Source of the DNA: Capitulum mitella
Taxonomy: Eukaryota > Arthropoda > Thecostraca > Pollicipedomorpha > Pollicipedidae
Assembly (NCBI GenBank): GCA_030062745.1
Contig: CP099849.1
Span: 23,858,144-23,922,143, forward strand
DNA: 64,000 nucleotides
Reading direction: 5' to 3'
Shown: positions 20,100 through 63,418 of the stretch, in pieces
Numbering within the stretch: position 1 is the first letter of the stretch
How the letters are laid out: each line of letters opens with the position of its first letter
Program-made: the position numbers and the translations under genes
The notes under the pieces: generated by a model
What the model was told of the DNA's origin: nothing
What the model saw: only the letters and a program-made list of their open reading frames with translations
Database searches by the model: none

Positions 20100-20239
20100 G
20101 AAGAGACATTCCCCACAGGAATCCCACAATGCCAAAAAAGACACCAGCATTAGAAGATCCAGGGGGAGGAGGCCATCGGTGCCAGTTTACAGACACAAAT
20201 GCCTTTCGTGTTCTAAGAGATGTAAAAATACATCTTACT

Positions 20240-24054: not shown

Positions 24055-24119
24055 TTTGGAATGGAGAAATAAATTCATCGAACCCTAAAATATGACAATG
24101 ATGCCGTTTTCCAATGCTG

Positions 24120-24240
24120 TATATCATAAAGCAAGAAAACACATGAACGGGTCACGATATTGGTATGGAATTTCATACCAATCATTGCCTTTGGCATAGA
24201 AAGCTCCATACCAAAGGTATATACAGATGTAAGCCCCTGC
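24120..24240 (+). repeat. Dispersed repeat R3, copy in segment A
   Basis: Two hairpin blocks: TTGGTATGGAATTTCATACC, then CTTTGGCATAGAAAGCTCC followed by ATACCAAAGG. It matches the copies at 14.7, 52.9 and 54.2 kb; the last is its counterpart in segment B. Confidence 0.6.
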
Positions 24241-26235: not shown

Positions 26236-26239
26236 ATGA

Positions 26240-27185
26240 GTGACAGATACGAATGGCGCTGCCCACAAGCAGCTCGCAGTCCTTTCGGACCCGGAGGCAG
26301 CAATCGCCCAGATGAAGATCGGGCATCGCGCCGCCCTCCTGCCCTTCCAGAAGGGATTCCTGGTGATCATCAGGTCGATGAGGGGACTCGTGGCCGACAT
26401 GGTGGAGCGCCTGGATTCCAGTATGTACGTGCTGCCAGGTCGGATCAACCAGGATGTCCTGGAGTCGTTCTTGCACCTGATGCTGGGAAGGGTGGCGCTA
26501 ACTTTAATCCAAACCCCAGTGAAGCGAAGTGTCGCGTGAGGAACCTGGTTCTGATGTACTACTGAAGCTGGGGCTGAATCTGGTAGCAGCGAACCAGACT
26601 GCAGCTGCAACCCAGCAAATGGGTGACGTCGACGATACTGTCATGTTTGACCTCGTCGACTTCGTGGAGGAGAAGACTGTGTAAGAGAACCAAGCTTCTG
26701 CGGACTTTGCAGACATGGAGTCGCAGCTGTAGATGTTGACCACCAGCACTGGACGCCGCTAACAGCCGCCAGCTCTTCACCGATCGACCCACAGACTGGA
26801 GTCTCGTCGGAGCGGTACGGCATGGCTCACGCGGCTGGCCATGTGTCGGCCAAGTGCCGCAAGACTGACTCGACGCTCTGCGCTTCATCGGCGCATGCAG
26901 ATGAGCAGGCACCAGTCAAGACTATGTGGACCCGGCTCCTCAGCCATGGTGGTCTGAACGCCCCGACCGCCAAGTGGATGGCCCAGTTCGAAACCATGGA
27001 GGGCGCCCTCTGCCGGCACCACCATCTAGAGCCGGACGGTCTCTCCCGCAGTCGCGGCGTGATCCGCGAAGTCACTGAGCTGTTGCGTGCGCAGCAGCCG
27101 ACATTGGATGTCAGAGTAGTCCGCCGCTTTGTTCGCCTCCGTACTTTTGTCCGCCTGGGTTGCCTCAACCGGGGACGGCGCCGCG
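26240..27185 (+). pseudogene. P-element (THAP9-like) transposase remnant, copy A
   Basis: Central part: IGHRAALLPFQKGFLVIIRS, then VLPGRINQDVLESF. This matches the stretch of P-element and THAP9-type transposases that reads L..F.KGF....NS... followed by (R/K)(L/I)(N/S)QD.LE(S/N)FF. The following GGxNxNPTPxxF-type block is visible only in another frame, as FNPNPSEAKCRVRNLVL, so the frame is broken after ESF. A stop follows near 26,565. The C-terminal part resumes in the first frame from 26,822, with WTRLLSHGGLNAPTAKWM, GVIREVTELLRAQQPTLDV and VVRRFVRLRTFVRLGCLN, again as in P-type enzymes. The N-terminal THAP domain and most of the catalytic region are not recognisable, and no terminal repeats were found. 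The same breaks appear in copy B, so it was dead before the segment was copied. Confidence 0.72.
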
Positions 27186-27284
27186 ACGCGAAGGAAAAGC
27201 GAGAGGCACGGAAAAAAGGAGTTCTGCAGCTAAAGTGGCAAACGCTACTGCCACATGCCTCGTGGCCCAGGTGCCGCGCTCCTG

Positions 27285-27430
27285 TTGGTCCTGCCGCCAC
27301 CTACGGTCCTTCCGCCACCTTCCTGTTGGTGCTGCCGCCACCTACGGTCCTGCCGCCACCTGCCTGTTGGTGCCGCCGCCTACCTTCCGGCCCTGATGCC
27401 ACGTGCCTGTTGGTGCTGAAGCCGCTTACC
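27285..27430 (+). repeat. CTGCCGCCACCT-type minisatellite, copy A
   Basis: About three to four units of 40-45 bp combining CTGTTGGT, GCCGCCACCT and ACGGTCCT. Copy B has fewer units at 57,385-57,495, so this array also varies in length between the copies. Confidence 0.6.
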
Positions 27431-27499
27431 TGTTGGTCTTGACGTCACCGCCGCTTGCCGTGCGGCCCGTGGAGCCGCTGTGAATCTGACACCTTGGAG

Positions 27500-29060
27500 T
27501 GAGCAGCTAACACCAGCTGTCCCAGTTTGATCTGCCCGGTTTGCATCGGCGTAACTTTCCGATTACTTACTAACGGCCCTTTCTGGAGGAAGACCGCGTG
27601 TGTCACTAACAGCCACAAGTTTCAGGTGTTTACGCACAAAGTAGAGCAAGGCATCCGTGTCTTTAGGTCTTTTGGTATAGCTATCTGATTGGTAGGCTTG
27701 CCGCCCGTTTTATACACTTTTTTACATCGTTAATGGCTAAGGCCACCTCCGTTTTATTTGTGCCCTACTACAGGCGCCGAAGTTCTCCACATTCAAGGGG
27801 TGTATTGGTGTTCCATTCCATTTGTTTTTTCCTGTTTTCCTATCCGACTTTTTGACAAGAAGGCGCGATGGAATGAAATTGAAGTTAAATCGGAAGAAAC
27901 GCTCGATTGACACCGATGTGCTGGCAAAATGAATTCGCTTAAAAGAGCGGAGATGTAGGACAGATGGATACTAAAATGCTCGCGCCGTCCCATCGGTGTC
28001 GCGCGCCGGCCGCCCACTGTGTGACACGGCATTCCAGATCCATTTCTGTGCTGTGGGTCATTAAGGTTCTTCTATAGCAGCTGCCTCGCCTCACCCATAT
28101 ACCTAGTAAGCGTCCGAGCACATCACAGACGTCAAATTGCATGTGCGCCGCCAATCTGAGAAAATTGTTTGGAATGGCGAAAATGTCTCGCGATTATCGG
28201 GAGTTTCACTGAAAATGACCCTTATTGCGTGATATGCAAAGTTCCAGAAAATACCCCTCCGACGGAATATATGGTGTTTTTTGTCAAATTGACCCAAGAT
28301 ATGAAGAGAAAATGCCTATGGTATCATACTTAGATGTATTTTATTGATTCAAATGTTAAAAAAACACCGGAACTCTCCATCCCAAAATGGCGTATTTTCC
28401 CATTCCTCTCCATGTTGAAGGCGTCGCGCTATCGCACCGGTGACGTCACGTCCCAGGAGTTGCCAGGAACACTGATGGGGCCGACGGTGGCCGTGAAGCT
28501 AAAGGTTTCGTCGACTCGCTTTCCGCACTGACGGCTGGGATATCCTTCCACCTTTCATTGACATTGGGGGGCGTTCATTGGGCGTAATGTTAAGCCGTAG
28601 GCGCAACGCCGTGCCGAAGGCGTTGCTTAGGATACTAGAGGCCGCCGGCTGATAAAAAGGTGCGATCAGACTTGGTTCTGTCCAACAAAGAATCGTGGAA
28701 AAAACTTGGGATAGCTAGTTTTGATTTTGGCAGCGAATTTTTACGTCTCATACCATCGTTCATACGGCTTAGCGTTGTTTCTGTGCTTCTTACGCCTGCT
28801 TAGTGTAACGTTCACAGCCAGCTGCCGTTCGGTAGCCACGTTCCACTGAAGGCTGGTCCGTGTCGACGCATGATTTTTCACCCCGCTGAACTTGCACGGC
28901 GGAGCCAGCTGCCGCGCGTTCAGTGGGACTGCGCCGGTCCTTCCACAGATGGCGCTGGCCGTCCCGCGGCCACCACGGCGGCGAGTCGCCCACGGCCGGC
29001 AAACCGCCACCGCCACCGCCACTCGATCAGCGCAGGCAACACGTCGAACATATTGTACAA
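27500..29060. other. No recognisable gene between P remnant and ataxin-1
   Basis: Shared with copy B and moderately GC-rich. Short frames exist in both copies, but none resembles a known protein. The stretch 28,150-28,330 reads CVICKVPEN and YMVFFVKL; any likeness to a THAP finger is too weak to claim. Confidence 0.4.
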
Positions 29061-29061
29061 G

Positions 29062-29113
29062 TTTATTCTCACTTCAGAGCACGAGCGGATTCGGAAAAAT
29101 AATACACTTTATT
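29062..29113 (-). terminator. Two candidate polyadenylation signals of ataxin-1, copy A
   Basis: AATAAA on the minus strand at 29,113-29,108 and again at 29,067-29,062, about 610 and 655 nt beyond the stop. Both are kept in copy B (59,196-59,191 and 59,150-59,145). Confidence 0.55.
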
Positions 29114-29718
29114 AGTCACAGCTATTAAAATAAGTCCCAAACCACAGTGTGATATTATACTGCGCGGTCTCGACAGTGCGCCGCGTTTATCCCTGAGAAT
29201 TCGAAAGTCTGAGTGCGCGGTCGCCAGCCCGGTCGGCGGAGGCGCTCCGCCCCGGCAGGCCTCCGACGGCCCGCGACCGCCGCACCAGCTCGGGGCAAAC
29301 ACAGGAAACAGGGCCGGGCCGTCAGTGGGAACTCGCGGCCGACACCGGCCGGCGCGCAGACGCGACAGATAAAAAATATCACAGGACGAATGGCCCGGTC
29401 CGGCGCCGAACAGGAGCGCAGCGGACAGCCGCCGGGCGGCCGAGCCGACCACAGCCAGACAGCGAGGCGGGCGCCCCGCCGGACAGCGGAGCCGCTCCGA
29501 CTGGAGCTGGACAGTGACGTCACATGGACACGGCTGAATAGTGGGGGCGCAACGCCGCGGCCGAGGGCGGCGCCGGCGGGACGCGGCCGGACAGCGGAGC
29601 CGCTCCGACCGCAGCCGGACAGTGCAGCCGCTCCGGCCCGGCCTGGCGGCAGGGACGACAGCGGCGGCCGCCGCCGCCGCCGTCGCCGGCAGCCCGCAGG
29701 ACGACCGAGCCGCGGCCG

Positions 29719-29916
29719 CTAGTTGCCGGGCCGACCGCGGCCGGGGCCGTCGGCGGGCGGCGGCGCGCCGCGCGGCGCCAGCGACACGCACGCGTCGCCC
29801 ACGGCCAGCTGATGGCAGGGCAGGCCGTACTGCTGCAGCGTGCGCGCCGGGCTGCACGACGACCAGCCGCGGTGGAAGACGAAGAACGGGTGCTCCAGCT
29901 GCGCCTCGACAGTCAC
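29719..29916 (-). CDS. ATXN1: Ataxin-1, coding exon 3 (AXH domain end), copy A
   Basis: Starts after the acceptor ...TTCGCAG and reads VTVEAQLEHPFFVFHRGWSS, then CSPARTLQQYGLPCHQLAVG and DACVSLAPRG. This is the second half of the AXH domain, where human ataxin-1 has EYPFFVFGQGWSSC and LPCSKLSVGDVCISL. Exon 2 joins in phase 0, giving HRTE-VTVEAQ. A short Gly/Pro/Arg tail follows and TAG closes the frame at 29,719, so the protein ends soon after the domain. Confidence 0.93.
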   Translation of the reverse strand: MTVEAQLEHPFFVFHRGWSSCSPARTLQQYGLPCHQLAVGDACVSLAPRGAPPPADGPGRGRPGN

Positions 29917-30485
29917 CTGCGAACCGAGGCCACGGCCGGTCAGTCAACGCCCGCCCCGGACGCTGCGTGCGACGGTCGGCACGCCACAACCGCGGACAGG
30001 GAAAAGCGGATGTCGGGCCCCGCGGGACGTGACGGAGACCCCACCGGAAGACGCCGACACGACGTAAGAAGGCTGAGGCCGAACATGGATAGCTGACCGT
30101 TCTTAGCTTCACCCCGGCGTTGAGACAAACGAGCATGTGCACACCATGGCAATGTCTTAAAATGACTTCGAAGCAAGCTGCGTATTTTATCCAGTGTCAT
30201 TTCGTCCCATCTTCGGTTGCACGAGTACGCATATGAAAAACCAGGACTGCCGAAGATGGTATGATTTCATTTCCGAATGGTTATCTCACCTTGCCGGGAA
30301 CATTTTTCAGCTAACCATATCAAACGAAGTAAATCGCTGTATCAAGGTGGCAGCAGCCGGGCACAGTTGTGACTGACCCGTATCAAGGATCACTGCTCCG
30401 TACCTCTGCTCAGAGCGGGCCAATTCACATTCCATTTTCGTCCACTGACGGAATACTCGTTCCGTGCATCTGCCCCATGCAGGGC

Positions 30486-31113
30486 CCTCTGTCCCTCTGT
30501 CCCACCGTCCCGTGAGGGCCCTCTCCGTGTTCCGTACCTCCGTCCGGTGCAGAGCTCTCTCAGTGTTCCGTGCCTCCGTCCCGTCAGGATCCTCTTAGTG
30601 TACCGTACCTCCGTCCAGTGCGGGCCCTCTCAGTGTTCCATACCTCCGTTCGGTGAGGGCTCTCTCAGTGTTTCGTACCTCCGTCCGGTGCAGACCCTCT
30701 GTGTTCCGTACCTCTGTCCCATAAGGACCTGTGTTCCGTACTTCAGTCACATGAGGACCTGTGTTCCGTACCTCTGTCCCATGAGGACCTGTGTTCCGTA
30801 CCTCTGTCCCATGAGGACCTGTGTTCCGTACCTCTGTCCCATGAGGACCTGTGTTCCGTATTTGTCCCATGAGGACCCTCTCATGTACCTTACATTCCAT
30901 ACCTGCACACCTCCGTCCGGTGAGGGCCCTTTCAGTGTTCCGCACCTCCGACCGGCGCGGGCCCTCACAGATTTCCGTTGTTCCGTACCTCCGTCCCGTG
31001 ACGGCCCTCTCAGTGTTCCGTACCTCCGTCCGGTGCAGGCCCTCTCAGTGTTCCGTACCTCCGTCCGGTGCACGCCCTCTCAGTGTTCCGTACCTCCGTC
31101 CGGTGCGGGCCGA
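30486..31113. repeat. 35-bp minisatellite at the exon 2/intron 2 border, copy A
   Basis: Three near-perfect 35-bp units (31,009-31,043, 31,044-31,078, 31,079-31,113) and a long tail of diverged units, including four or five 30-bp versions at about 30,730-30,860. The unit contains TTCCGTACCTCCGTCCGGTG. Read on the minus strand this is the end of exon 2 plus the donor (CACCGGACGGAG, then GTACGGAA). The last unit overlaps the real exon 2 border at 31,094, so the array grew from that junction into the intron. Confidence 0.9.
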
Positions 31114-31251
31114 CGGCGAAGACGATGTGCGCGGTGCGGCCCAGCTCGTCTATGCGCGTTACCACGCTGCGGTCCAGCCGCAGCTCGGCCGACTGCTCGG
31201 CCGACGTCTCGAAGTCTTCGGTGCGCAGCTCCTCCACCCGCTTCAGTCGAC
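31094..31251 (-). CDS. ATXN1: Ataxin-1, coding exon 2 (AXH domain middle), copy A
   Basis: 158 bp between acceptor ...CCGGCAG and donor GAG|GTACGG. It reads GRLKRVEELRTEDFETSAEQ, then SAELRLDRSVVTRIDELGRT and AHIVFAVGPHRTE. Human ataxin-1 has GELKKVEDLKTEDF and VIQFAVGEHRAQ at the same places. The first codon (Gly) is split with exon 1 (phase 1); the end is in phase 0. The donor lies inside the 35-bp minisatellite unit, so behind it come further copies of the same exon-end/donor sequence. Confidence 0.93.
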
Positions 31252-31807
31252 CTGCCGGTCGCCGTCGCGCCGCGTCAGTGCCGCGTCAGGCCACACGGCG
31301 TCAGCGCAAAACTCCGCGAGCAGAGGTCACAGGGCGTCCGACACATACTCGGCCATCACAGGCCGCACGTCAGAACAGAGTCCGTCGCCGCGGTTCAAAC
31401 GACGTCAGTTCACCAGTCCCGCAATCGCAGATCGCGACGCGAACGCAGTCAGCCGGTCCGATAGCTTAGGCCTCCTGACGGGACAGCCGTCAGGAGACGG
31501 CTGTGCGGACGGTGCGGTGTCAGCGCCCCCGCCCGTACCCGCCGGGTGCGACCGCACCGCACCGCAATGTTTACCGACGGCTCCCGGCCGCGCCCCCTCC
31601 CCATCTAGTGGCATCGCGGACTCTGACCTCACCCCCGGCGCGCGCACCACGCCGGCGCTGATCGGGCAGCAGCACAGCGCGACCGGCTGTTGAGCGGCGT
31701 GACGTCACGCCGTGTGGGAGACCTAGCGATCGACCGGCGCGCCGGACGGGCGCGAGTCAACACTGGGCCGTTGCGACCGCGACAGCACCGCCGGTCCGGC
31801 AGCTCAC

Positions 31808-32690
31808 CATCAGCCAGCTCGATGATCGAGCCCATGCGGAAGTGCTCGGGAGGCGCGCAGTGATCGTTGTTGACGATGGATGGCATGTCGGAGCCGTCGC
31901 CCTCAGCGGCCGTGGCGGCGGCAGCGGCGGTGGCGGCGGGAGCGGAGGCGGGGACGGCGGCCGGCCGGTCGCGAGGCTGGGCCGGCTCCACGCGGGCCCG
32001 CTTGGGCGGCGGCGGCTGCTCACTGGCCGCCTCCGAGCCGGGCATGCGCGTCCTGGGCGAGCCGTCGGCCGGCGGCGGGCGGCGCGCCGCCGGCGACACG
32101 CCGCCGTACGGGTAGCCGGCCGCCGTCGGGGCGCCGGCTCGCGGCGGCGTGGCCGCGCCCGGGTACGCCGCCCGCCCGAGCTCGTAGACGCCGCTCACGT
32201 GCGGCGGGTAGTGGGCCGGCACGCGCAGCACGCCCTCCTTGGCGACGCCCGGCGCCGGCGGTCGGAAGCCGCACTGTTCGTCGGCCAGCGGCCGGAACGC
32301 CGGCGGCGCCGCCCTGGCGGCCGCTGGCGGCGCCACCAGCGCCTCCTTGCCGGGTGGCGGTCGGTAGCTGAGAGGGTACAGCTGTCGCGCGTCGGCGGGC
32401 GGCGGCAGCGGCGGCCGCACGGCGCCTGGCGAGCTCGGCGGCGCGTACGCCGGGTACGAGTACGGCTGGTAGACGGCGTGCGTGGTGGTCGGGTAGCCGA
32501 GCTGCAGCAGCGTGGCGGCCGCGACGCCAGGGTGATAGGACGGGTACAGCGCGGACGGGTCGGCGGCGGCGGGAGGCTTCAGCGCATCGCGGCCTCCACT
32601 CATCAAGCGGCCGAGCGGGGGCGCGTACAGCGGCGGGTAGGCCGGGGGCAGGCGCGGCTCACCGGCCGCCAGCGGCGCCGACAACAGCAT
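31808..32690 (-). CDS. ATXN1: Ataxin-1, coding exon 1, copy A (protein of 412 residues in all)
   Basis: Ataxin-1 family proteins are nuclear co-repressor partners that bind Capicua-type factors through the AXH domain. This exon codes 294 residues plus one base. Residues 1-210 are rich in Pro, Ala and Tyr. A likely nuclear signal, PPPPKRARVE, lies at 226-235, then an alanine tract at about 249-262. The AXH domain opens at about 282 with PEHFRMGSIIELADG (human FMKGSIIQLANG). The donor is GATG|GTGAGC. The three exons (883, 158 and 198 bp) join in frame without a stop. The start at 32,690 is the first ATG after a good acceptor (GTTTCAG at 32,705-32,699), so a 5' untranslated exon probably lies upstream. 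There is no polyglutamine tract. The amino-acid sequence of this exon looks the same in copy B. Confidence 0.93.
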
Positions 32691-32699
32691 GGCAGCACC

Positions 32700-34440
32700 T
32701 GAAACACGGACACAGGCCGGACGTCACGACAGCCCGCCACTCGGCGGCCTGCACGCTCGGGCCGGGCACACGGCCACGTCCGCGGACCACTCGGCGTCGG
32801 GGCGGCGCGGCCAGTCACGCGACCGGCCGGATTGTCCGGCGACGCCGCGCTCCGGGCGCCCTGACCTTTCCCGGAACATGACAGACGGCCGACTGACCAG
32901 GAGCCGCCCGCGTGCCAACACGAGCCGCGAATGGGAGCTGCTTCGGCATGCGGTTTAGCCCACTGCCCACTGGGACTCACATGAAGGTGATCTGACATTC
33001 CTTCCCACGCGGCCAGTGCACCTACCCTGAAACTGGTTGCCGCAAACACAACATTCGTAATCATGGCTTTCACACGTGGAGGGAGTGCAAAAGGACAGAA
33101 AATGCCGATAACGGTGGCCCACGACATCCGTCGGCGAGCGGACGCCGACCGGTCGTCTGGTACGCCTCGCTCAAACGTCCCGAGACGCCCGGGGCGCCTG
33201 CTGCTGTCAGTGGCGCCCACGTCGCGAGGTCGACACGGTCAGACGAAGGCGCGTGCTCGCCGCTCCATAACTCTGCGGTCCCGCAGCCCCAGGCCAGGGC
33301 GCCGTCTGACGGCCGGCCGGCCGCCGCCGGCCCGACAAGCGGCAAAAGCGGCAGCGCGCGCGCCGCGCGCCGGCCGACACCAGGCCCGCCAGCACCGGCG
33401 CTGGCCCAGCCGGCGCGACGGCCAGGCCGGCGGCAGAAAAACACGGCGACGGTGGCCTGGTCACCGTCGATCACTGCACCGGCTCCTGTCTGCGGACGGC
33501 GCCGATCGGCGGAGAATAACGCCGGACAGCGGAAAACAGCAGCGTGCGGCGGAGAACAACGCCGGACAGCGGCGAATAGTGGAGAACAGCGGCGGACAGC
33601 GGAAAACAGCAGCGTGCGGCGGAGAACAACACCGGACAGCGGTGAAGAGTGGAGAACAGCGGCGGACAGTGGCTGCAGACGGCGGAGGGCAGCCGGAAAC
33701 AGCACGCGGCCACCAGGAACGCGAGGCGGCGGCGGCCGGACGTGCGACGGACGCGGGGCTGCGAGCCGCGTGACTCCGTTCCGGTGGCCGCGGAGCGAAG
33801 CTGCTCGCCGGCCGACCCCGCCCGCCGACGGCCGGCGAGCTCACCCGGCACGCCGCGGTCGAGTGCGGTCCCGCCCGAGCGGCGGCGCCGCGTCAGCGCT
33901 CGCCTGCGCCGCCCCCCAGTCGCGCCATGAACGCCTCGCTGGCGTGACGAGCGCGGCTCGGCGGCCGGCCGGCGCGGCGCCGCCCCGTGTTTGCCGACCG
34001 TGAGCGGGCCGGCCGGACCTGCCGTGCAGCTGCACAGTTCAAACACGGCCGCCCCAGACCGACGGCACGGCCACGGCGGCCGTCGCAGGCAAGGTCAGCC
34101 GCGGCCGGCGCCGTCCGTGACCGGCGTGTCGGCACGCGAGCCTGCCGCCGACTGCTCAAAGGGCCGCATCAACCACGCATGGGCAACAGGGGGGGGGGGG
34201 CACGCGGCGTACGGCTGCTTTGTGCAGCTGTCTGGCGTAACGCGATGCCGTCCGGTGAGCAGAGCCGGGCGGAGGAGACGGTCCCACCTGGGTCAGCCCG
34301 CCCCTGAGGAGACGGCCCGGCTTGGACCAGCCCTGAGACCTAATCGGACGCCGTCCCGCTCCCAGCGGCGCTGTGACGCCGTTCCGCTACCCACGGCGCT
34401 TTGTCGCCGACCAGGCAGAACCTCAGTCTTTTCCCAAGTA
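32700..34440. promoter_or_regulatory. GC- and CpG-rich region upstream of ataxin-1, copy A
   Basis: The CG dinucleotide is very frequent and stop-free frames occur on both strands, as expected from composition alone. It lies just upstream of the ataxin-1 start codon and its putative 5' acceptor. A promoter and first non-coding exon are likely in or beyond this stretch, but no core promoter element is clear. The first 570 bp are shared with copy B. Confidence 0.4.
33490..33680 (+). repeat. GGAGAACA(A)CGCCGGACAGCGG minisatellite
   Basis: Nested repeat: short units such as GGAGAACAGCGGCGGACAGC arranged in two larger blocks of about 90 bp that share AAAACAGCAGCGTGCGGCGG. Confidence 0.75.
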
Positions 34441-35162
34441 GCTCGAAATTCCATCGCCGACTAGACACCTGGATGTGCACTGCATGTTCCATTGGCTCAG
34501 AAATTCAGCCTTGGATTATCTGATCAATCTTGGTTCAGGAGCCTCTAAGCCCGACAAAAGCTTTGAACACGAATTCCATGAAGTCCGGGTATTTCTGGAC
34601 AAGATTGCTGGTTGCTGACAACTCCCCGTAGGAATGCAGTAAGCTGGCTGAATCACGCATACTTTGTTGAGTTTTCTTCCATTAAACGGAAAATCTTCCT
34701 TTACCCAGTCCGTAAAATGGGCCAAGGAAGCCGCGGTTAATACTCAAAAACAAAAAATGTTATGCCACAATCTCCTTTCTTATTCAGTGCGATAAAAGTC
34801 CCATACCATCCATGATTTTACTGTCGCAGAATCTATCCACCTCTTATGTTAACGAACCGAAGTTGGTTGATGAATCATTCCGCCGAGGGTTTAAATCGGC
34901 CTCACACGAGTCGAACTCCAATACCCAAGACCTATGTAACACCGAAAGGAGCCCATGCATTCTGACGTGGTCTGCCGCCGCGTGCCATCGGCTTTCCAGC
35001 TGTGGGACGCGGCTGTGAGACCTCAGCGACGGCACAGGATCAACACGCGACTGCGATACGGGACTCTCACAACCTGACCACAGCCGCACGGTGGGCGGCC
35101 GACGGTCAGGGGCCGGAGGCCGGCCCTCCCTCGGAGCTGGTGCCGGCAGCAGACATAGAAGG

Positions 35163-35262
35163 CTCCAGGCGGATACAGCAGCCTCCAGGCGGATACAGCA
35201 GTCTCCAGGCGAGCACAGCAGTCTCAAAGCGGACACAGCAGCCTCCAGGACACAGCAGTCTC
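35163..35262 (+). repeat. 20-bp minisatellite (five units)
   Basis: Five tandem units close to CTCCAGGCGGATACAGCAGC. Units 1 and 2 are nearly identical; the others carry substitutions or a 3-bp loss. Confidence 0.85.
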
Positions 35263-35313
35263 GATAAAGAGGCGTCGAATCCCTCCTCTCGTCACGGAGG
35301 TGGGATACACCGG

Positions 35314-35378
35314 ACGTGACGGGGTGGCACACACAGGACGTGACGGGGGATGCGATACCAGGACGTGACGCGAGGTGG
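35314..35378 (+). repeat. GGACGTGACGGGG repeat (three units)
   Basis: Three units of about 25 bp, each with GGACGTGACG. The TGACG core resembles a CRE half-site, but no function is implied. Confidence 0.5.
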
Positions 35379-38351
35379 GCCGCTCACGGATGATGGGACG
35401 GCCGGTGACGGGACACTTGCTGGCTGCACTGCGGCCCACCGCTGCGGGGCCATCCGACGGGCTCGCGAACCCCGCGAGGGCTGCGTAGCCTTCGAGCAGT
35501 GGCTGGGCTGCCGAGACGCGACTCGGCCCGCGCCGTACATCCCGTCGGCTTCGAACGCCGCCCGGCCGCAGCCGCCTCCATGCCCGAAGAACTTGGTAAA
35601 CACGCCGGTCCGCTGCCGCGGCCCTAAATCCGGCCGCCAGCGGCCACAGCGGCAGAATAGAGCCAATTACGGACCGCGTCACGGATCGCCAACACTTCAG
35701 CGACCGCCGCCGGGGGGGGGGAGGGGGGTCGAGTAGCATCGCGCTGCAGAAAGGCAGCCGAGGCCAACCTTCCGTGAGAGGTATCTGTTGGACACGCTCA
35801 ACAGGAGGCCACATCACGGACGTCAGCAAGTCCCAGCGACGCAAAGGGCTTCAAGTGCAGTGACCTCACCCATCGTCAAACGCCGAAATGGACGCAATAC
35901 GCGACGCGTGATGTCATCATCAAGAATACCGCTTCACGAGCAGGGCCTGGCGCCAGCCTCCGGCCGGCCGGCCGGTGGGGCTGCGCTGAACCCCGTTCGA
36001 CACACTCACACGGCGATCGCCGCGTTCGTCTGGCAGGTATTCGCAGGCCGCGCGCCCGCAACGCGATGTGCCGGCACCACCAGGCCGGCCCGGCCGCGCC
36101 GCCGCCGAGCCCGCACCCAGTCCCCAGTCCGCCGGCACGGGTCGAGCGGCGCGGCGGTATCGGCACAGTGCGGGCGGCCGCGCCGCGACAGGCTGCGGCC
36201 CTGGCCGTCCACGCCGCGGCCGCCGCAGCGCCCTCCAGAACCAATGCGCCGTCCTCTCGCCGCCGCCGAGGCGCCCGCCCGGCTCGGCCATAAAGCCCGA
36301 GTAACGTCCGTCCTTGGCCGGCCGTAACTTTTCATGGTGCGTTTTTAGTGCGCGGCCCGGTGTGGAGCTCAGCGTCCGCGCTGCGCAGCACGGGGCGCTC
36401 CGTCCCGTCGACAGCCATCTCCGCTCCGGCCGCGCGCGCCCCGGCGCCGCACATCAAACAGTGCCTCCGAGAGAAAACGCCGCGGGGCTGACTGCCACTC
36501 CCGGTCCTATCTAACGCCGATCGCTTCATTTCGTCCTTCTGTTACACCGAACCGCGCCTCAGCTCCGTCAGCGCCAGGAGGGTGAAATCGTCCCACAGCC
36601 ACAGGAGGGATCTCGTGCCTGTCTAGCTCTTCGGCGAGCAACGCCCTGGTTGAACTGAGTTCATTCGGATAAAGTTCAGAGGTACCCACCACCTATTTCG
36701 ACGCTGCCTAACGACATCGCAAAGCACGAATGCATTTGCTGCGTTTCAGGTGGTTTCGTTCGGCACTATTTCGCAAGGTCACAATGACTTCCCTGAAGCG
36801 CGGACCACAAGTCCAGGGTAGTTTGCCGCCCACATTGCAGGACTACGTTTGCACAAGCCATCTATCGCCAGGGTCCGCGGCATCCAAGGTTGCGGTTCCG
36901 CCAAATAATTACGCTTCACAAAACTGGTGGTCACAGCATGGCTTAGCAGCCTGGGAACAGCATTTCATTAGCAAAATCCGGTCCGCCGGCTTATAAAAAT
37001 ACCCGAAAATATTTCGGATCATGCAAATACCAGTGAAAGTAACTACTTTTCTGGACGTGGTTTCAGATCTGAGCTGGGACGTCGTGCAACCATAACGGAT
37101 ATCGAGGCTAATTCCCGCTACTTCCTGGGCAGGGGATCCCTGCTAGTGGTTCAGTGGAAAAAAAAAACACTGCGAAAAATGCCTGCAAGCTTACATGCCT
37201 ACAAAGCCAAAAAGGTATTTCAAACTGAAGCGGTATTTCCCTATTACGTAGTATCTTTGCGACAGAGCATGGACACGCAATAGCACGAAGCATATTCGCT
37301 CAGACTTCCGTAAAGGTACGCTCCGATACACACAGCTGATCGGACTGAACTTTTCATGTGGTACCTATGACCGCACCTCCGCCCACATCTGTCCATTTTC
37401 CGGCAAGTTCAAATGCCTTATGAGGACTGTATGCATACCGCGAAGGATTTCACTACGTTTTTAAACAGAGGAATACCACCCTTTGTTCCTGGTTCCCGTT
37501 GAAATAAAAATTCATTCAATATTACAAGTCAACGGCGTTTCACACAGTAGAAATACACCACTGTACTGCCAGCTCGCCAAAAAGGAAAAAGATGGAATGC
37601 GCTGAACAGTAAGCATGACGACTCTAGTCTGTATGTCTTGGGAAAACATTTTAAGGTTTCATGGAAACCTGTCATCTGGTGCAGAATGCAGAGGGTGGCT
37701 GAAGTCAAATAGGTCTATAGCACGAAATTCTCATGGGAAATATCTTACGTTCAAATCAAATCGGCAGAGATCACAAGTTTCATAATTATGGTTTACATAC
37801 AAGTAAATTTCATGTTCCATCCAACTGAATCAGAGGGCAAACCAATGACTTACCAATGTATGAAACATGACAAGCATGGGCAGGTTAAGAACTGGATGAG
37901 CAAATGTTACGCGGAAAGAAGCGAAAATCAAGTGACGTGAGGCCTTCCGGAATACGGCATACAACGCAATTACCCGAGCCCGATTCCATGATCATTACTG
38001 ATACTGATCTAAACAAAAGCAGTCATCTGACATTAAAAACCGTTCACGTGGCGTTTCTTGAACTGGCGAGTAGTGGAGGTACAAACGAACCTGGACAAAC
38101 GTATGAAACGAACGGACAAACGCATGAGAGTTGCATGACCATCTGAGTAATTAAGGCAGTCGACCGATACTCGGCAGCTACCATTAAAACTGCACGCCAA
38201 TGACGGTTGGTGGATGAAATGTGGGCTTCGCCTGAAATAAAAATGAAAACATTTGAAACATATCACAGAAATGCTCCAAATCTCAGCAGAAGTATTCTTC
38301 GCGGGAGGAGACAGTCATGGTGCACACGGCACGTCAAACACGCTAAACCAC

Positions 38352-38578
38352 CTGTCACTCCAACACAATACACCGGACACTGACTGACCTGCAGTTCATT
38401 ATCATGTGCCGGGACAATGACTTGTAATTCCAACACAACACACCGGACACTGACTGATTTGCGACTCCTGGGCCATTTAACGAACGCTGACTGACCGGTA
38501 ACTCCTACACAATATGCCGGATGCTGAATGGTCTGTAACCCCTCTACAATTCAACGCGTCCTGACCTATTTCTAACTC
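38352..38578 (+). repeat. Diverged minisatellite of about 55 bp
   Basis: Four to five units built on AACTCC(A/T)ACACAATA and CCGGACACTGACTGA, increasingly diverged toward the right. Confidence 0.65.
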
Positions 38579-39014
38579 CCACGCTCAACACTTGGGGGTC
38601 ACGGATCCGTCACATCCCGGCAGCCGGGCTGGGAGCCCACCAGCTCCTTCAGCGAACCAGAGCGATCCCTCAGCGGTGGCGACCAGAGGGCTCGCGGCCC
38701 TCAGAAACACTCCGGGGACTGCGTTGAACGTCCGTCCGCTACGACGACACCACCCCCGCCGCCTGTCAGGATCGTCGCCGGACGACGCACCGAACGGTGA
38801 ACCGTGGGCAGGCAGGCGGCCGCAGGTACAGCGGGAACGAATCGCTGGGAGAACGGCCCGGCCGAGGCTCAGCCGACACCAGAAGCGCCAGCGCAACGGC
38901 CGGCCGTCCGCGGCGCGCAGTCACGTGACACGCGACGCCCACTTGCCGGCGGCGGCCGTTCGCGCGGCACGTGACGCCGCTCCCGGCTGCAGTCACGTGC
39001 CCGCGGCCGCGGCG

Positions 39015-39033
39015 CCCATGCATTATGCATGGG
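39015..39033. promoter_or_regulatory. Palindrome CCCATGCAT-T-ATGCATGGG
   Basis: A 9-bp perfect inverted repeat around one central base, in a CpG-rich block with CACGTG and CCGCGGCCGCGG next to it. It could be a dimeric homeodomain or POU-type site; this is inference only. Confidence 0.35.
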
Positions 39034-39179
39034 CCGGTGCGGCGCGCGGCCCGGCACCGTGGCCCGGCTAATGTATGCAAGGGCGCCGTTTACCCGGATC
39101 CGCCGCGCACTGCGCGCGCATGCCAATGTCCGGCGCAGGGTGCCGTCCGCAGTCCGGTGACAATAGCCCGCGCGCGGCT

Positions 39180-39181
<2 letters not shown>

Positions 39182-39224
<43 letters not shown>
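39182..39224 (+). repeat. (GA)n microsatellite
   Basis: GA run of about 43 bp with one GG interruption. Confidence 0.9.
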
Positions 39225-39794
39225 AGCGTTCGTGTGCAACATGGACATGAAGAATGAAGGACAGGGACAAGAGGGGCATTGAGGGGGCAGCCAGGAAGGG
39301 AAGGTAAGCGGGTGGCGGGGAAGGCGGGGCGGCCGTGCTAAGTCCCACCCCAACGGCCTTGCCAGCCCAACTCAAGGCCGTTTGGAAGCCGTTGGGCCTA
39401 ATCCCACCCCCTGGTTGATCGCAGACGGCCTAATTGAAGTGGTAACGTTTGGTGCTAGCCTTAATTGCCGGGTTAAAGGTTGGTTGCATTCCCGCGGCCT
39501 GGCCTCCCCCGAGTGCGACGTTGTCAAAGAGCGACCGGCATCTTCCAAAAACGTCCATCCACTTTCCGGGAAGATCAATCGACGATGACACCGGCACCAC
39601 GCTCGACCAGAATACATGTTTGCGCGATACACGTGTTTTTGCCCGAGTTCCGCCCTATCTGACCGTTGCCATGGCGACCGACTGCAGAGCGCTGCAGGTC
39701 TCGCATGACTGCCGTCAGCTGGCGAAGAGTCCGGGCGACGAGGACATGGTCGTCGGGCACGCAAACAAAGAGGCGGGCGCATTCGGGCTATTTG

Positions 39795-40294
39795 NNNNNN
39801 NNNNNNNNNNNNNNNNNNNNNNNNNNNNNNNNNNNNNNNNNNNNNNNNNNNNNNNNNNNNNNNNNNNNNNNNNNNNNNNNNNNNNNNNNNNNNNNNNNNN
39901 NNNNNNNNNNNNNNNNNNNNNNNNNNNNNNNNNNNNNNNNNNNNNNNNNNNNNNNNNNNNNNNNNNNNNNNNNNNNNNNNNNNNNNNNNNNNNNNNNNNN
40001 NNNNNNNNNNNNNNNNNNNNNNNNNNNNNNNNNNNNNNNNNNNNNNNNNNNNNNNNNNNNNNNNNNNNNNNNNNNNNNNNNNNNNNNNNNNNNNNNNNNN
40101 NNNNNNNNNNNNNNNNNNNNNNNNNNNNNNNNNNNNNNNNNNNNNNNNNNNNNNNNNNNNNNNNNNNNNNNNNNNNNNNNNNNNNNNNNNNNNNNNNNNN
40201 NNNNNNNNNNNNNNNNNNNNNNNNNNNNNNNNNNNNNNNNNNNNNNNNNNNNNNNNNNNNNNNNNNNNNNNNNNNNNNNNNNNNNNNNNNNNNN
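39795..40294. other. Assembly gap of exactly 500 N
   Basis: A run of 500 N, a typical fixed-size scaffold join of unknown true length. Copy A lies left of it and copy B right of it. Apparent frames that cross it are meaningless. Confidence 0.99.
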
Positions 40295-41810: not shown

Positions 41811-43113
41811 GGGGGGGGGGCTCCTCTACACGCCAGGAGCCTCTCCACAGACCGTGAACGAATCCCTCTACAGGCTGGCAGGAGCCTACAGACGGCGGCA
41901 AGGGCCCATGCGTGTCAGAAAGGGTCTCTCCATGCCGACAGGGAACCAGCTACAGGCAACCAGGAGGCCCTTTCCGACTGGCAGGGGGCCCTTGCAGGCT
42001 GGCAGGGCCCCGTAGCACTACAGAGGGTCCCTCCACAGACTAGCAGGGACCCGAAGGCTGGCAGGTGCTCACAGGCCACTAGGGAGTCTTACAGACTGGT
42101 AGGCGGTCCCTGCAGGCCGGTAGGGGCCCAAAACGCCGGCAGAAGACCCCCTACAGGCCGGCAGGTGACCCGTGCAGGCGGGTAGGGCCCCCTGTAGGTC
42201 AGCAGGGAGCCACTGCAGCCAGCAGAAGCCCTACAGACTGGCTGGGGGCCCCATAGGCCGGCAGAGGGACCCTGCAGGCCGGCAGGGCGCCCCTACAGGC
42301 TGGCAGGGGGCCTGCACAGTCTGGCAGGGATACTACAGACCGACAGGGGGTCCCCTACAGGTCAGTAGGGGTCCTTCTATGGGCTTGGACCTCTTTAAAC
42401 GGCCTCAGGAACCCTTTGTCGTATTGAGATCCCTCTTGCTTTCCCAGGGACTCGGGGCTCGTATGTCATTCAAGGGGCCCCTCTGCCGTCTTACAGACTC
42501 AGCCCTCACCTTGGCTGTCTCAGGAGCCTTGGAATCTGTAAGGGCCTTGTAAGCCCCTTGTAAGGGCCCCTTCTGGCGGTCGCAGGGGAAATCTGCCGTG
42601 TTGGGGCTCTGTTATGATCTCAAGGACCCTTTGGGAGTTTCAGGGGCCCTTCCACGCATCTCAGAGGTCGTGTAACCCTTTCAGAGGCCCCCTGACTGCA
42701 TCAAAACTTTTTTTTTACCTTTTTATCAAGAACGTTTTCAGACCCCGTAAAACTTAAACTGGGCCCCTTCGGGACCCATTTGAGCCTGAGATGGACCCGT
42801 CCGGGGCCAGCCCGAGAGGCGCCCCTTCTCGGTTGGTTATTGGGGCTTAGGGGCGCACCGACTTCAAGGTCTTTTCTGGATGTTCTTTCGCTCTTGAGTT
42901 TTATGAGCATAAAAATGACAAATGCGAGTAATTAGAGCTATTGGGTGCATGGAGTTGGCCGAAAGGCAAACTAAAAAGCAGTAGTGTTTATTATTCGATG
43001 CGAGCTGTTATCCTTCAGTGCTAGATCAACAACGCACGACTGGCCCCTAAACCCAGGAAGCTGCGGCTGCGCGTGTAGGGCGTGCAAGTCTAGAATGCCA
43101 GCCGGGGGCTTCC

Positions 43114-46100: not shown

Positions 46101-46676
46101 TTTCAAAATCAAACGAGGCCCCGAAGAAGCCCATATGAGCTTTGCGGGGTTTGTAAAAACGTGACGGGTTCTTGATGCAATCCGGGCGCCTCTGGGAGAG
46201 CTAGATGACCCCTGAGACGCGTAGAAGGGGCCAGGAAAACAATCAGGGGGCTCTACGGATCACAGGAGACAAAGCGGGACCTCGGAAATGTCTGAAGGGG
46301 GCCCACCGCCACCAAGGTCATAGAAAATTACTCGTATAAGAACCGAAGCTATCGCTACAATGTTTTAAGAACGGCAGACAAGAAAAGACAGAAGATGGAA
46401 TATATAGATCCAAGCATACAGAGGGGCCCCTATAGGCCTGAAGGGGCCCCTGTCGGCCTGTAGGGGGCCCCTGCCTGCCCATGGAGGCACCCTGCCGGCT
46501 CGTAGGGGTCCCCTGCCGGTCTGTAGGGGGTCCCTTGCTGGCCTGTAGGGCTCCTGCCAGCCTATGGAGGCCCCCTGCCAGCTTCTAGGGGTCCGGCCGG
46601 CCTGTAGGGAGATCCTGGCGGCCTGTAGGGTCCCCTGCCAGCTTGTAGGGCCTCCTGCTAACCTGAAAGGACCCAC
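43114..46676. other. Block present in copy B only, inside the foldback-like element
   Basis: Absent from copy A, where GGGGGCTTCC joins directly to TGCTGGTTAAC. The right part (46.0-46.68 kb) carries the same kind of GC-rich repeats as the rest of the element, so A most likely lost the block. The left part (43.1-45.9 kb) is different: it has GAGTCGGAGTTG-type motifs (43.2-43.6 kb), a CTCGGACTTGGACTC-type tract (43.69-43.86 kb) and no recognised gene. It may itself be an insertion into the element. Confidence 0.6.
44900..45146. mobile_element. Short MITE with GGCGGATCCAG ends
   Basis: Left end GGGCGGATCCAGCGGCG (about 44,901-44,917) and right end CCACTGGATCCGCCACTGG (about 45,127-45,145) are inverted, with G-rich and C-rich inner flanks. 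At about 250 bp with no coding capacity it resembles common hAT-type MITEs. No clear target duplication was found. Confidence 0.4.
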
Positions 46677-59801: not shown

Positions 59802-59999
59802 CTAGTTGCCGGGCCGACCGCGGCCGGGGCCGTCGGGAGGCAGCTGCGCGCCGCGCGGCGCCAGCGACACGCACGCGTCGCCCACGGCCAACTGGTGGCA
59901 GGGCAGGCCGTACTGCTGCAGCGTGCGCGCCGGACTGCACGACGACCAGCCGCGGTGGAAGACGAAGAACGGGTGCTCCAGCTGCGCCTCGACCGTCAC
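59802..59999 (-). CDS. ATXN1: Ataxin-1, coding exon 3, copy B
   Basis: As exon 3 of copy A: acceptor ...CGCAG|GTGACGG, then EHPFFVFHRGWSSC and GLPCHQLAVGDACVSLAPRG, stop TAG at 59,802. It differs from A only behind the AXH domain, where A has GAPPPADG and B has GAQLPPDG. Confidence 0.92.
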   Translation of the reverse strand: MTVEAQLEHPFFVFHRGWSSCSPARTLQQYGLPCHQLAVGDACVSLAPRGAQLPPDGPGRGRPGN

Positions 60000-60589
60000 C
60001 TGCGAACCGAGGCCACGGCCGGTCAGTCCACGCCCGCCCCGGACGCTGCGCGCGACGGTCGGCACGCCACAACCGCGGACAGGGAAAAGCGGATGTCGGG
60101 CCCAACGGGACGTGACGGAGACCCCACCGGAAGACGCCGACACGACGTAAGAAAGCTGAGGCCGAACATGGATAGCTGACCGTTCTCAGCTTCACCCCGG
60201 CGTTGAGACAAACGAGCATGTGCACACCATGGCAATGTCTTAAAATGACTTCGAAGCAGGCTGCGTATTTTATCCAGTGTCATTGCGTCCCATCTTCGGT
60301 TGCACGAGTACGCATATGAAAAACCAGGACTGCCGAAGATGGTATGATTTCATTTCCGAATGGATATCTCACCTTGCCGGGAACACTTTTCAGCTAACCA
60401 TATCAAACGAAGTAAATCGCTGTATCAAGGTGGCAGCAGCCGGGCACAGTTGCGACTGACCCGTATCAAGGATCACTGCTCCGTACCTCTGCCCGGAGCG
60501 GGCCAATTCACATTCCATTTTCGTCCACTGACGGAATACTCGTTCCGTGCATCTGTCCCATACAGGGCCCCCTGTCCCTCTGTCCCACC

Positions 60590-61840
60590 GTCCCGTGAGG
60601 GCCCTCTCAGTGTTCCGTACCTCCGTCCGGTGCAGACCCTCTCAGTGTTCCGTGCGTATGTCCCGTGCGTGCCCTCTCGGTGTTTTGTACGTATGTCCCA
60701 TGAGCCCTCTCAGTGTTCCGTGCCTCCGTCCCGTCAGGATCCCCTTAGTGTACCGTACCTCCGTCCGGTGCGGGACCTCTCAGCGTTCCATACCTCCGTT
60801 CGGTGAGGGCTCTTTCAGTGTTTCGTACCTCCGTCCGGTGCAGACCCTCTGTGTTCCGTACCTCTGTCCCATGAGGACCTGTGTTCCGTACTTCAGTCAC
60901 ATGAGGACCTGTGTTCCGTATCTCTGTCCCATGAGGACCCTCTCATGTACCTTACATTCCATACCTGCACACCTCCGTCCGGTGAGGGCCCTTTCAGTGT
61001 TCCGCACCTCCGACCGGCGCGGGCCCTCACGGATTTCCGTTGTTCCGTACCTCCGTCCCGTGACGGCCCTCTCAGTGTTCCGAACCTCCGTCCCGTGACG
61101 GCCCTCTCAGTGTTCCGTACCTCCGTCCCGTGACGGCCCTCTCAGTGTTCCTTACCTTCCTGTGGTGCGGGCATTCTCGGTGTTCCGCGCTTCCATCCCG
61201 TGAGAGCCCTCACAGTGTTCCGTACCTCCGTCCCATGAGGACCCTCCCAGTGTTTAGCATCTACATCAGGTGCGGGCTCCCTCAGTGTTCCGTACCTCCG
61301 TCCGGTGCGGGCTCCCTCAGTGTTCCGTACCTCCGTCCGGTGCGGGCTCCCTCAGTGTTCCGTACCTCCGTCCGGTGCGGGCTCCCTCAGTGTTCCGTAC
61401 CTCCGTCCGGTGCGGGCCCTCTCAGTGTTCCGTACCTCCGTCCGGTGCGGGCTCCCTCAGTGTTCCGTACCTCCGTCCGGTGCGGGCTCCCTCAGTGTTC
61501 CGTACCTCCGTCCGGTGCGGGCTCCCTCAGTGTTCCGTACCTCCGTCCGGTGCGGGCCCTCTCAGTGTTCCGTACCTCCGTCCGGTGCAGGCCCTCTCAG
61601 TGTTCCGTACCTCCGTCCGGTGCGGGCCCTCTCAGTGTTCCGTACCTCCGTCCGGTGCGGGCCCTCTCAGTGTTCCGTACCTCCGTCCGGTGCGGGCTCC
61701 CTCAGTGTTCCGTACCTCCGTCCGGTGCGGGCCCTCTCAGTGTTCCGTACCTCCGTCCGGTGCGGGCCCTCTCAGTGTTCCGTACCTCCGTCCGGTGCAG
61801 GCCCTCTCAGTGTTCCGTACCTCCGTCCGGTGCGGGCCGA
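60590..61840. repeat. 35-bp minisatellite at the exon 2/intron 2 border, copy B (expanded)
   Basis: Sixteen near-perfect 35-bp units from 61,281 to 61,840, then increasingly diverged units down to about 60,590. Two unit types alternate, ending GGGCTCC or GGGCCCT, plus one with GCAGGCCCT. The last unit overlaps the end of exon 2 (61,821). Near-identity at the exon side and decay away from it point to recent growth from the junction. The unit has no stop in any plus-strand frame, which creates long meaningless frames there. Confidence 0.92.
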
Positions 61841-61978
61841 CGGCGAAGACGATGTGCGCGGTGCGGCCCAGCTCGTCTATGCGCGTTACCACGCTGCGGT
61901 CCAGCCGCAGCTCGGCCGACTGCTCGGCCGACGTCTCGAAGTCTTCGGTGCGCAGCTCCTCCACCCGCTTCAGTCGAC
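61821..61978 (-). CDS. ATXN1: Ataxin-1, coding exon 2, copy B
   Basis: Encodes the same protein segment as exon 2 of copy A, with the same acceptor (GGCAG) and donor (GAG|GTACGG). Fifteen near-perfect copies of the exon-end/donor sequence follow at 35-bp steps. Confidence 0.92.
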
Positions 61979-62535
61979 CTGCCGGTCGCCGTCGCGCCGC
62001 GTCAGTGCCGCGTCAGGCCACACGGCGTCAGCGCAGAGACTCCGCGAGCAGAGGTCACAGGGCGTCAGACACATACTCGGCCATCACAGGCCGCACGTCA
62101 GAACAGAGTCCGTCGCCGCGGTTCAAACGACGTCAGTTCACCAGTCCCGCAACCGCAGGTCGCGACCCGAGCGCAGTCAGCCGGTCCGATAGCTTAGGCC
62201 TCCTGACGGGACAGCCGTCAGGAGACGGCTGTGCGGACGGTGCGGTGTCAGCGCCCCCGCCCGTACCCGCCGGGTGCGACCGCACCGCACCGCAATGTTT
62301 ACCGACGGCTCCCGGCCGCGCCCCCTCCCCATCTAGTGGCATCGCGGGCTCTGACCTCACCCCCGGCGCGCGCACCACGCCGGCGCTGATCGGACAGCAG
62401 CACGGCGCGACCGGCTGTTGAGCGGCGTGACGTCACGCCGTGTGGGAGACCTAGCGATCGACCGGCGCGCCGGACGGGCGCGAGTCAACACTGGGCCGTT
62501 GCGACCGCGACAGCACCGCCGGTCCGGCAGCTCAC

Positions 62536-63418
62536 CATCAGCCAGCTCGATGATCGAGCCCATGCGGAAGTGCTCGGGAGGCGCGCAGTGATCGTTGTTG
62601 ACGATGGATGGCATGTCGGAGCCGTCGCCCTCGGCGGCCGTGGCGGCGGCAGCGGCGGTGGCGGCGGGAGCGGAGGCGGGGACGGCGGCCGGCCGGTCGC
62701 GAGGCTGGGCCGGCTCCACGCGGGCCCGCTTGGGCGGCGGCGGCTGCTCACTGGCCGCCTCCGAGCCGGGCATGCGCGTCCTGGGCGAGCCGTCGGCCGG
62801 CGGCGGGCGGCGCGCCGCCGGCGACACGCCGCCGTACGGGTAGCCGGCCGCCGTCGGGGCGCCGGCTCGCGGCGGCGTGGCCGCGCCCGGGTACGCCGCC
62901 CGCCCGAGCTCGTAGACGCCGCTCACGTGCGGCGGGTAGTGGGCCGGCACGCGCAGCACGCCCTCCTTGGCGACGCCCGGCGCCGGCGGTCGGAAGCCGC
63001 ACTGTTCGTCGGCCAACGGCCGGAACGCCGGCGGCGCCGCCCTGGCGGCCGCTGGCGGCGCCACCAGCGCCTCCTTGCCGGGTGGCGGTCGGTAGCTGAG
63101 AGGGTACAGCTGTCGCGCGTCGGCGGGCGGCGGCAGCGGCGGCCGCACGGCGCCTGGCGAGCTCGGCGGCGCGTACGCCGGGTACGAGTACGGCTGGTAG
63201 ACGGCGTGCGTGGTGGTCGGGTAGCCGAGCTGCAGCAGCGTGGCGGCCGCGACGCCAGGGTGATAGGACGGGTACAGCGCGGACGGGTCGGCGGCGGCGG
63301 GAGGCTTCAGCGCATCGCGGCCTCCACTCATCAAGCGGCCGAGCGGGGGCGCGTACAGCGGCGGGTAGGCCGGGGGCAGGCGCGGCTCACCGGCCGCCAG
63401 CGGCGCCGACAACAGCAT
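62536..63418 (-). CDS. ATXN1: Ataxin-1, coding exon 1, copy B
   Basis: 294 codons plus one base, with the same protein sequence as exon 1 of copy A as far as I can read; the base changes seen are silent. The ATG at 63,418 again follows a TTTCAG acceptor. With its exons 2 and 3 it gives a complete frame of 412 residues, so both copies look able to make the protein. The silent-only pattern fits either two alleles or a recent duplicate still under selection. Confidence 0.92.

What the first reader, a model, noticed from the sequence alone, without database searches (positions are those of the whole stretch)
61281..61840. A minisatellite that multiplies the ataxin-1 exon 2 splice donor (16 copies in B)
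Seen: on the minus strand each 35-bp unit contains GCACCGGACGGAG directly followed by GTACGGAACACTGAG, that is, the last bases of the AXH-coding exon 2 plus the 5' splice site. The final unit overlaps the real border. Known: identical nearby donors compete. Inference: use of donor 2 or 3 would lengthen exon 2 by 35 or 70 nt and shift the frame of exon 3, and the unspliced array meets a stop in the third unit, so only the first donor keeps the AXH domain. The array could act as a donor trap tuning how much full-length protein is made, or select for strong first-donor choice. I know of no described case of a repeat grown from a coding-exon donor in this family.
Basis: partly seen in the sequence, partly recalled or inferred. 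Interest (0 to 1): 0.8.

Follow-up and report, generated by a model that had tools for sequence, protein, structure and literature searches.

The report
Repeat array copying a splice site
In an arthropod ataxin-1 gene a 35-base DNA repeat that begins inside a coding exon has copied that exon's splice signal many times over; the same kind of repeat is already known in human genes, and here it looks like a young, length-variable repeat whose effect on splicing still has to be measured.

Summary
On the minus strand 16 consecutive 35-bp units (donors 61821 to 61296) each carry an identical GAG|GTACGG donor. The first is the true end of ataxin-1 exon 2: splicing there gives a full AXH domain (Pfam 130.8 bits, gap-free at the junction against human ATXN1); donors 2, 3 and 4 leave half a domain (44.7, 41.8, 44.1 bits). 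The array is longer than reported: 36 anchors, about 1.25 kb, two thirds of intron 2. The unit repeats exon sequence and its 23-nt core was found nowhere else in the 477-Mb genome at up to 2 mismatches. Copies A and B are most likely two haplotypes in series, since homology runs to a 500-N gap; 3 versus 16 exact donors is then allelic length variation.

No sign of selection on the extra donors, no structural preference for donor 1 and no RNA evidence; donor 3 opens a 652-codon frame rather than truncating. The kind is known: ABCA7 intron 18 (25-bp VNTR including the exon 18 donor; one-unit retention about 2%, not following length) and IFI6. Best reading: a young, near-neutral donor-spanning minisatellite, donor 1 used, slight leakage. 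New member of a known kind.

The parts
62536..63418 (-). ataxin-1 exon 1 coding part, copy B (ATG at 63418; donor ATG|GTGAGC)
61821..61978 (-). ataxin-1 exon 2, copy B, 158 nt, first half of AXH; true donor GAG|GTACGG after 61821
59802..59999 (-). ataxin-1 exon 3 to the stop codon, copy B, second half of AXH
60588..61838 (-). 35-bp minisatellite, 36.5 copies, overlapping the last 18 nt of exon 2 and filling about two thirds of intron 2 (1821 nt)
61296..61838 (-). uniform block: 16 exact donor units (last exon-like G at 61821 minus 35n, n = 0-15)
60588..61261 (-). older, degenerate units (2-12 differences from the exon-border unit in the 18 compared), with 30-, 33- and 43-bp variants
61148..61158 (-). 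pseudo-donor AAG|GTAAGG in degenerate unit 20 of B (that unit is not in A); best U1 match of the 147 GTs scanned between the exon 1 donor and the start of exon 3 (-10.0 against -5.9 kcal/mol for donor 1) and the most accessible of 24 B sites tested
31808..32690 (-). exon 1, copy A (2 of 883 nt differ from B)
31094..31251 (-). exon 2, copy A (identical to B over 158 nt)
30505..31111 (-). the same array in copy A: 3 exact donor units, then degenerate units
29719..29916 (-). exon 3 to the stop codon, copy A
39795..40294 (.). 500-N gap between copy A and copy B

Best explanation
A 35-bp segment straddling the exon 2 / intron 2 border of an arthropod ataxin-1 gene (18 nt exon, 17 nt intron) was duplicated in tandem and became a minisatellite. 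Its first unit is held because it encodes AXH residues and the true donor. An old degenerate part lies deeper in the intron; a recent burst (or homogenisation) in haplotype B made uniform units next to the exon, so two haplotypes carry 3 and 16 exact donors. The pre-mRNA thus offers many donors with the same local sequence. I expect donor 1 to be used most, because it alone bounds the real 158-nt exon and is transcribed first, with a low level of donor 2 or 3 use giving non-functional or aberrant product, as measured in human ABCA7. The array persists as near-neutral variation, not as a tuned switch. Shown: gene model by homology, donor identity, shared exon sequence, uniqueness, coding consequences, length difference between A and B. 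Inferred: direction of origin, haplotype status, use of donor 1, leakage, near-neutrality.
For: AXH 130.8 bits with donor 1 against 44.7, 41.8, 44.1 for donors 2-4 (the last three scored on fragments that start just before AXH); gap-free at the junction against 1oa8. Units 2-5 share 13, 18, 18 and 17 nt with the exon 2 end, including codons for the H-R that human ATXN1 also has. Core absent elsewhere in the genome at up to 2 mismatches. Units 1-16 have 0-2 differences, units 17-34 have 2-12 (anchors 35 and 36 not compared). No substitution private to one unit among units 1-16 (the three singletons are where the last row runs into unit 17), although A/B divergence of 1.49-2.37% in three non-coding flanks predicts 3.9-6.2 over 15 units (P 0.002-0.02), so the block is younger than the A/B split. 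A/B homology runs to the N gap; both proteins are 412 aa with 3 differences, all after the AXH match. Donor columns not conserved in old units. ABCA7 precedent: one-unit retention 2 +/- 1% (the second of two values given 'respectively'), not affected by array length.
Against: No transcript data were available; donor choice is unmeasured. Donor 1 is weak: 13 of 147 GTs scanned between the exon 1 donor and exon 3 pair better with U1 and 22 score the same, so downstream use could be larger than in ABCA7. The strongest and most accessible site is a pseudo-donor inside B's array (61156). In IFI6 two downstream repeat units are used as donors (PMC4526556). The age order is clear in B (rho 0.79, n = 34) but not in A (rho 0.24, n = 15, p 0.39), and the far end holds near-consensus units. 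The donor-conservation test has 13 units and little power. The last 631-bp A/B block before the gap is only 80% identical.
Confidence: 0.77

Rival explanations
1. Donor trap: U1 binds the extra donors, and productive splicing (or expression) of AXH-containing ataxin-1 falls as array length grows; the array is kept or tuned because of this.
For: Identical local donor sequence in 16 units, donors 2 and 4 onward truncate AXH, length differs between copies. In ABCA7 longer arrays go with lower expression and more exon 19 skipping (PMC5954066).
Against: Donor columns are not conserved in old units; in ABCA7 use of the one-unit donor, and the NMD response, did not follow array length; no RNA here.
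Confidence: 0.12
2. A and B are true tandem gene duplicates, not haplotypes, so the different array lengths are between paralogues.
For: Both lie in order on one contig; identity of collinear blocks varies from 80 to 99.6%; B has three long insertions relative to A; the first 960 bp of the B contig match nothing in the stretches compared.
Against: A and B are separated by a 500-N gap and A's homology to B runs to the last base before it (39794), as expected for overlapping contig ends of two haplotypes.
Confidence: 0.1
3. The exon end was taken from a pre-existing intronic minisatellite that spread over the border, rather than the repeat from the exon.
For: P, T and E of the exon end GPHRTE differ from human GEHRAQ, so conversion from units cannot be excluded.
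Against: H-R is shared with human ATXN1 and encoded by the repeated part; old units, not the exon, carry the deviant bases there; the exon is identical in A and B.
Confidence: 0.05
4. Unit numbers are assembly artefacts (collapse in A, or expansion in B).
For: Uniform blocks are error-prone in assembly; raw reads were not available.
Against: B's 16 units are of three types (8, 6 and 2 of 16) in a non-periodic order, and the block is only about 560 bp.
Confidence: 0.05

Closest known systems
ABCA7 intron 18 VNTR, human (PMC5954066; passages and section 21 read)
   Same: Array starts at the coding exon's donor, the unit begins with the donor GT, the unit is not a multiple of 3, length is polymorphic, and use of the second donor gives a one-unit frame-shifting extension.
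   Different: 25-bp unit described as beginning at the GT; here a 35-bp unit that also repeats 13-18 nt of exon in the units compared. ABCA7 has RNA data, a length effect on exon 19 skipping and a disease association; none is available here.
IFI6 (6-16, G1P3) minisatellite, human (Turri et al. 1995, title seen in reference lists only; statement read as a passage in PMC4526556)
   [quoted passage not shown] two downstream repeat units serve as donors.
   Different: Its unit is 12 bp, so in frame (recalled, from no call); here 35 bp shifts the frame.
Internal tandem repeats at exon-intron boundaries in human segmental duplications (PMC2812944; passages read)
   Same: Minisatellite-size units (30 bp on average) that vary in number between copies; 27 intron modifications reported.
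   Different: Those cases had transcript support and include new introns; here no acceptor is evident in the unit.
TERT intron 6 38-bp VNTR, human (PMC3948165; abstract and outline read)
   Same: Intronic minisatellite of similar unit size that affects splicing.

Membership tests
Donor-spanning minisatellite (ABCA7 / IFI6 kind) | Array begins at or overlaps the true donor of a coding exon | tested here: met
   Exon 2 ends at 61821, array reaches 61838; border fixed by AXH scores and the human alignment, not by RNA
Donor-spanning minisatellite (ABCA7 / IFI6 kind) | Repeat units carry copies of the donor | tested here: met
   16 consecutive exact copies in B, 3 in A; of 13 older full-length B units examined 9 keep GT, 3 have GC, 1 has AT
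Donor-spanning minisatellite (ABCA7 / IFI6 kind) | Unit number varies between alleles | tested here: inconclusive
   3 against 16 exact units; A and B probably, not certainly, alleles
Donor-spanning minisatellite (ABCA7 / IFI6 kind) | Downstream unit donors are used in transcripts | not testable with these tools
   No RNA data
Ataxin-1 (AXH) gene | AXH domain above the Pfam cut-off, best match ataxin-1 | tested here: met
   130.8 bits, cut-off 33; best of 6 PDB sequences matched is 1oa8 ATAXIN-1, E 7e-37
Intron gain by AGGT tandem duplication | Duplicated segment contains AGGT | tested here: met
   GAG|GTACGG in every exact unit; model as described in PMC4974935 (abstract)
Intron gain by AGGT tandem duplication | A new intron whose acceptor lies in a repeat copy | tested here: inconclusive
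   Only 0.35 pyrimidine in the 20 nt before the unit's AG, so a working acceptor is unlikely; no RNA

The most novel reading that the evidence does not exclude
The array is a selected, length-variable dosage and isoform switch for ataxin-1: identical donors draw U1 away from donor 1 in proportion to array length, and use of donor 3 makes a 652-residue protein with half an AXH domain and a long alternative-frame tail, open in both haplotypes.
Probability: 0.06. Interest if true: 0.65.

Novelty: new member of a known kind. Interest (0 to 1): 0.33.

Why it matters
It is a natural experiment on how a cell picks one donor among many with the same local sequence: donors 1 to 16 share 13 exonic and 15 intronic bases without a difference, so exon context, order of transcription and U1 crowding are left to decide. 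It also gives a non-human, frame-shifting counterpart to the disease-linked ABCA7 repeat, apparently with two allele lengths in one assembly, which allows an allele-specific test.

Tried and rejected
RNA structure as the reason for donor 1: accessibility of the donor 9-mer at three window sizes gave no advantage of donor 1 over donors 2-16; rejected.

Selection on donors: in 13 older full-length B units the donor columns are not more conserved. Of the 18 older units listed there, 5 (units 23-27: 43-bp, 86-bp spaced, 30-bp and 33-bp forms) were left out of that count.

Recursive splicing or intron gain inside the array: the unit's AG lacks a pyrimidine tract (0.35); put aside, not excluded.

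Origin from a genome-wide repeat: no other place at up to 2 mismatches; rejected, with the tool's warning that very common words are skipped.

An ataxin-1 paralogue without the array as a control: Pfam AXH gave 6 places, 4 of them exons 2 and 3 of A and B. In 30 kb fetched around the two others exon 2 has no tblastn match at E up to 1 and exon 3 has one, 50% identical, in the C9 gene (the output had been cut). No paralogue with this border was found to compare.

In the 124 kb already held (window plus L007-L009, L024-L026; not random, L007 overlaps the window by 144 bases, and A and B copies of one array count twice) 16 arrays of period 10-130 with at least 4 copies were counted, so minisatellites are common here.

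One A/B alignment of the distal array (11.17%) was probably out of register and is not used. The A/B divergence used for dating leaves out an exon 3 stretch (8 of 201, 3.98%), whose differences gather after AXH. The first attempt to place exon 3 in copy A failed and was redone.

Literature: 10 of 10 searches used. One search (minisatellite, splice donor, exon-intron boundary, tandem duplication) found 0; (ataxin-1, AXH domain, minisatellite) found 1. Passages of PMC8724738 did not settle which of several equal donors is favoured.

Full report
What is there. The minus strand holds an ataxin-1 gene in copy B: exon 1 63418-62536, exon 2 61978-61821 (158 nt), exon 3 from 59999 to a stop at 59802, giving 412 aa. 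The spliced protein scores 130.8 bits against Pfam AXH (cut-off 33). The best of 6 matched PDB sequences is human ataxin-1 1oa8 (E 7e-37), aligned without a gap at the exon 2/3 junction (one two-residue gap lies elsewhere).

The array. TRF gives 60588-61838, period 35, 36.5 copies. It overlaps the last 18 nt of exon 2 and fills about two thirds of the 1821-nt intron 2. Sixteen consecutive units carry exactly GCACCGGACGGAG|GTACGGAACACTGAG, with 0-2 differences from the exon-border unit over 35 columns. Units 17-34 have 2-12 differences; some are 30, 33 or 43 bp long (anchors 35 and 36 were not compared). In copy A 3 exact units precede a 43-bp unit that B has as its 23rd.

Origin. Units 2-5 share 13, 18, 18 and 17 nt with the end of exon 2, including the codons for H-R that human ATXN1 also has (VGPHRTE against VGEHRAQ). 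The 23-nt core lies at 39 genome places with up to 3 mismatches: 36 in these two arrays and 3 elsewhere, each at 3 mismatches; the reversed control has 0. A 560-bp search gave 6 matches, all at these arrays. Both searches skip very common words. The simplest reading is a local duplication of the border. Whether the exon end was later altered by conversion from units cannot be excluded.

Two copies, probably two haplotypes. A 500-N gap lies at 39795-40294. Homology between A and B starts at 20100/41255 and runs to 39794, the last base before the gap, which matches 77066 in the extended sequence; collinear blocks are 93.2-99.6% identical except the last, 631 bp at 80%, and B has three long insertions. 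The first 960 bp of the B contig (40295-41254) have no match in the stretches compared. Exons differ little: 2 of 883 nt in exon 1, 0 of 158 in exon 2, three residues in the whole protein, all after the AXH match. Overlapping contig ends of two haplotypes explain this best; a real tandem duplication remains possible. On the haplotype reading, 3 against 16 exact donors is an allelic length difference.

Age. A/B divergence in three non-coding flanks is 1.49, 1.62 and 2.37%. If the uniform units were as old as the A/B split, 3.9-6.2 unit-private substitutions would be expected over 15 units (P of none 0.002-0.02); none is seen in units 1-16. The uniform block is younger than the split, by recent growth or by homogenisation. 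The age order from the exon is clear in B (Spearman 0.79, n = 34) and not in A (0.24, n = 15, p 0.39), so I describe a young block next to an old one, not a smooth gradient.

Consequences of donor choice. Donor 1 gives 412 aa, donor 2 meets a stop at the junction (359 aa), donor 3 gives 652 aa in another frame if exon 3 runs on unspliced, donor 4 stops in the third unit (374 aa): the same in A and B. In B the further donor-like sites (5 to 26) and in both copies full retention also end at 374 aa. AXH falls from 130.8 bits to 44.7, 41.8 and 44.1 (the last three scored on fragments). Whether exon 3 is the last exon was not tested; if it is, these stops would not trigger junction-dependent NMD.

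What could favour donor 1. Its U1 duplex energy is -5.9 kcal/mol, against -8.1 for exon 1's donor and -14.0 for a full consensus. Of 147 GTs scanned between the exon 1 donor and the start of exon 3, 13 pair better and 22 score the same. The best is a degenerate unit of B at 61156 (-10.0), which is also the most accessible of the 24 B sites tested. Accessibility does not single out donor 1 among donors 1-16 (all). What remains is exon definition and order of transcription (recalled ideas, not tested). In the other direction, U1 crowding is often said to favour the intron-proximal donor (recalled).

Comparison with what is known. ABCA7 intron 18 carries a 25-bp VNTR whose first two bases are the exon 18 donor; retention of one unit was seen, out of frame, at 2 +/- 1% (the second of two values), and not affected by array length, whereas exon 19 skipping rose with length and expression fell (PMC5954066; passages and section 21). 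IFI6 uses two downstream repeat units as donors (PMC4526556, passage); the original paper (Turri 1995) is not held. Human segmental duplications hold 27 intron modifications by tandem repeats (PMC2812944, passages). So the kind is known. New here are the gene, the animal group, and the 35-bp unit that carries part of the exon.

Organism. The genome has 16 contigs and 477 Mb and many cuticle-protein matches (150 scored of 627 candidates), so it is an arthropod. The largest of three contig lengths seen is 45.52 Mb. The barnacle Capitulum mitella is reported with 16 chromosomes and a longest one of 45.43 Mb, but 463 Mb in one assembly and 512 Mb in another (PMC8416341, PMC11331182, passages). That fits but is not a test.

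Verdict. A real and neat case of a known kind. Its value lies in a clean allele-specific splicing test that is cheap where RNA exists. Without RNA, the donor-trap idea stays a minority reading.

Noticed in passing
L024:5330-5860 (G000:C9 about 4.28 Mb): A gene with the end of an AXH domain (29.7 bits, below the cut-off of 33), followed by what I take from memory for an HMG-box start (HBP1-like; Pfam did not call it on the 117-aa piece), has another, unrelated 35-bp minisatellite (5.4 copies) beside a 121-bp array just upstream of that exon.
   Followed up: partly
window 61064-62421, + strand: The array is open in three plus-strand frames (ORFs of 377, 317 and 387 aa), a by-product of a stop-free 35-bp unit; taken as no gene without further test.
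   Followed up: no
window 20100-39794 and 41255-64000: Two gene-bearing copies separated by an N gap: a likely unpurged haplotype overlap that would make ataxin-1 look duplicated in annotation.
   Followed up: partly
window 20993-21206, 42108-42309, 46423-46650: 21-bp GC-rich tandem arrays related to each other; the first two are A/B counterparts, the third matches them inverted at about 70%.
   Followed up: no
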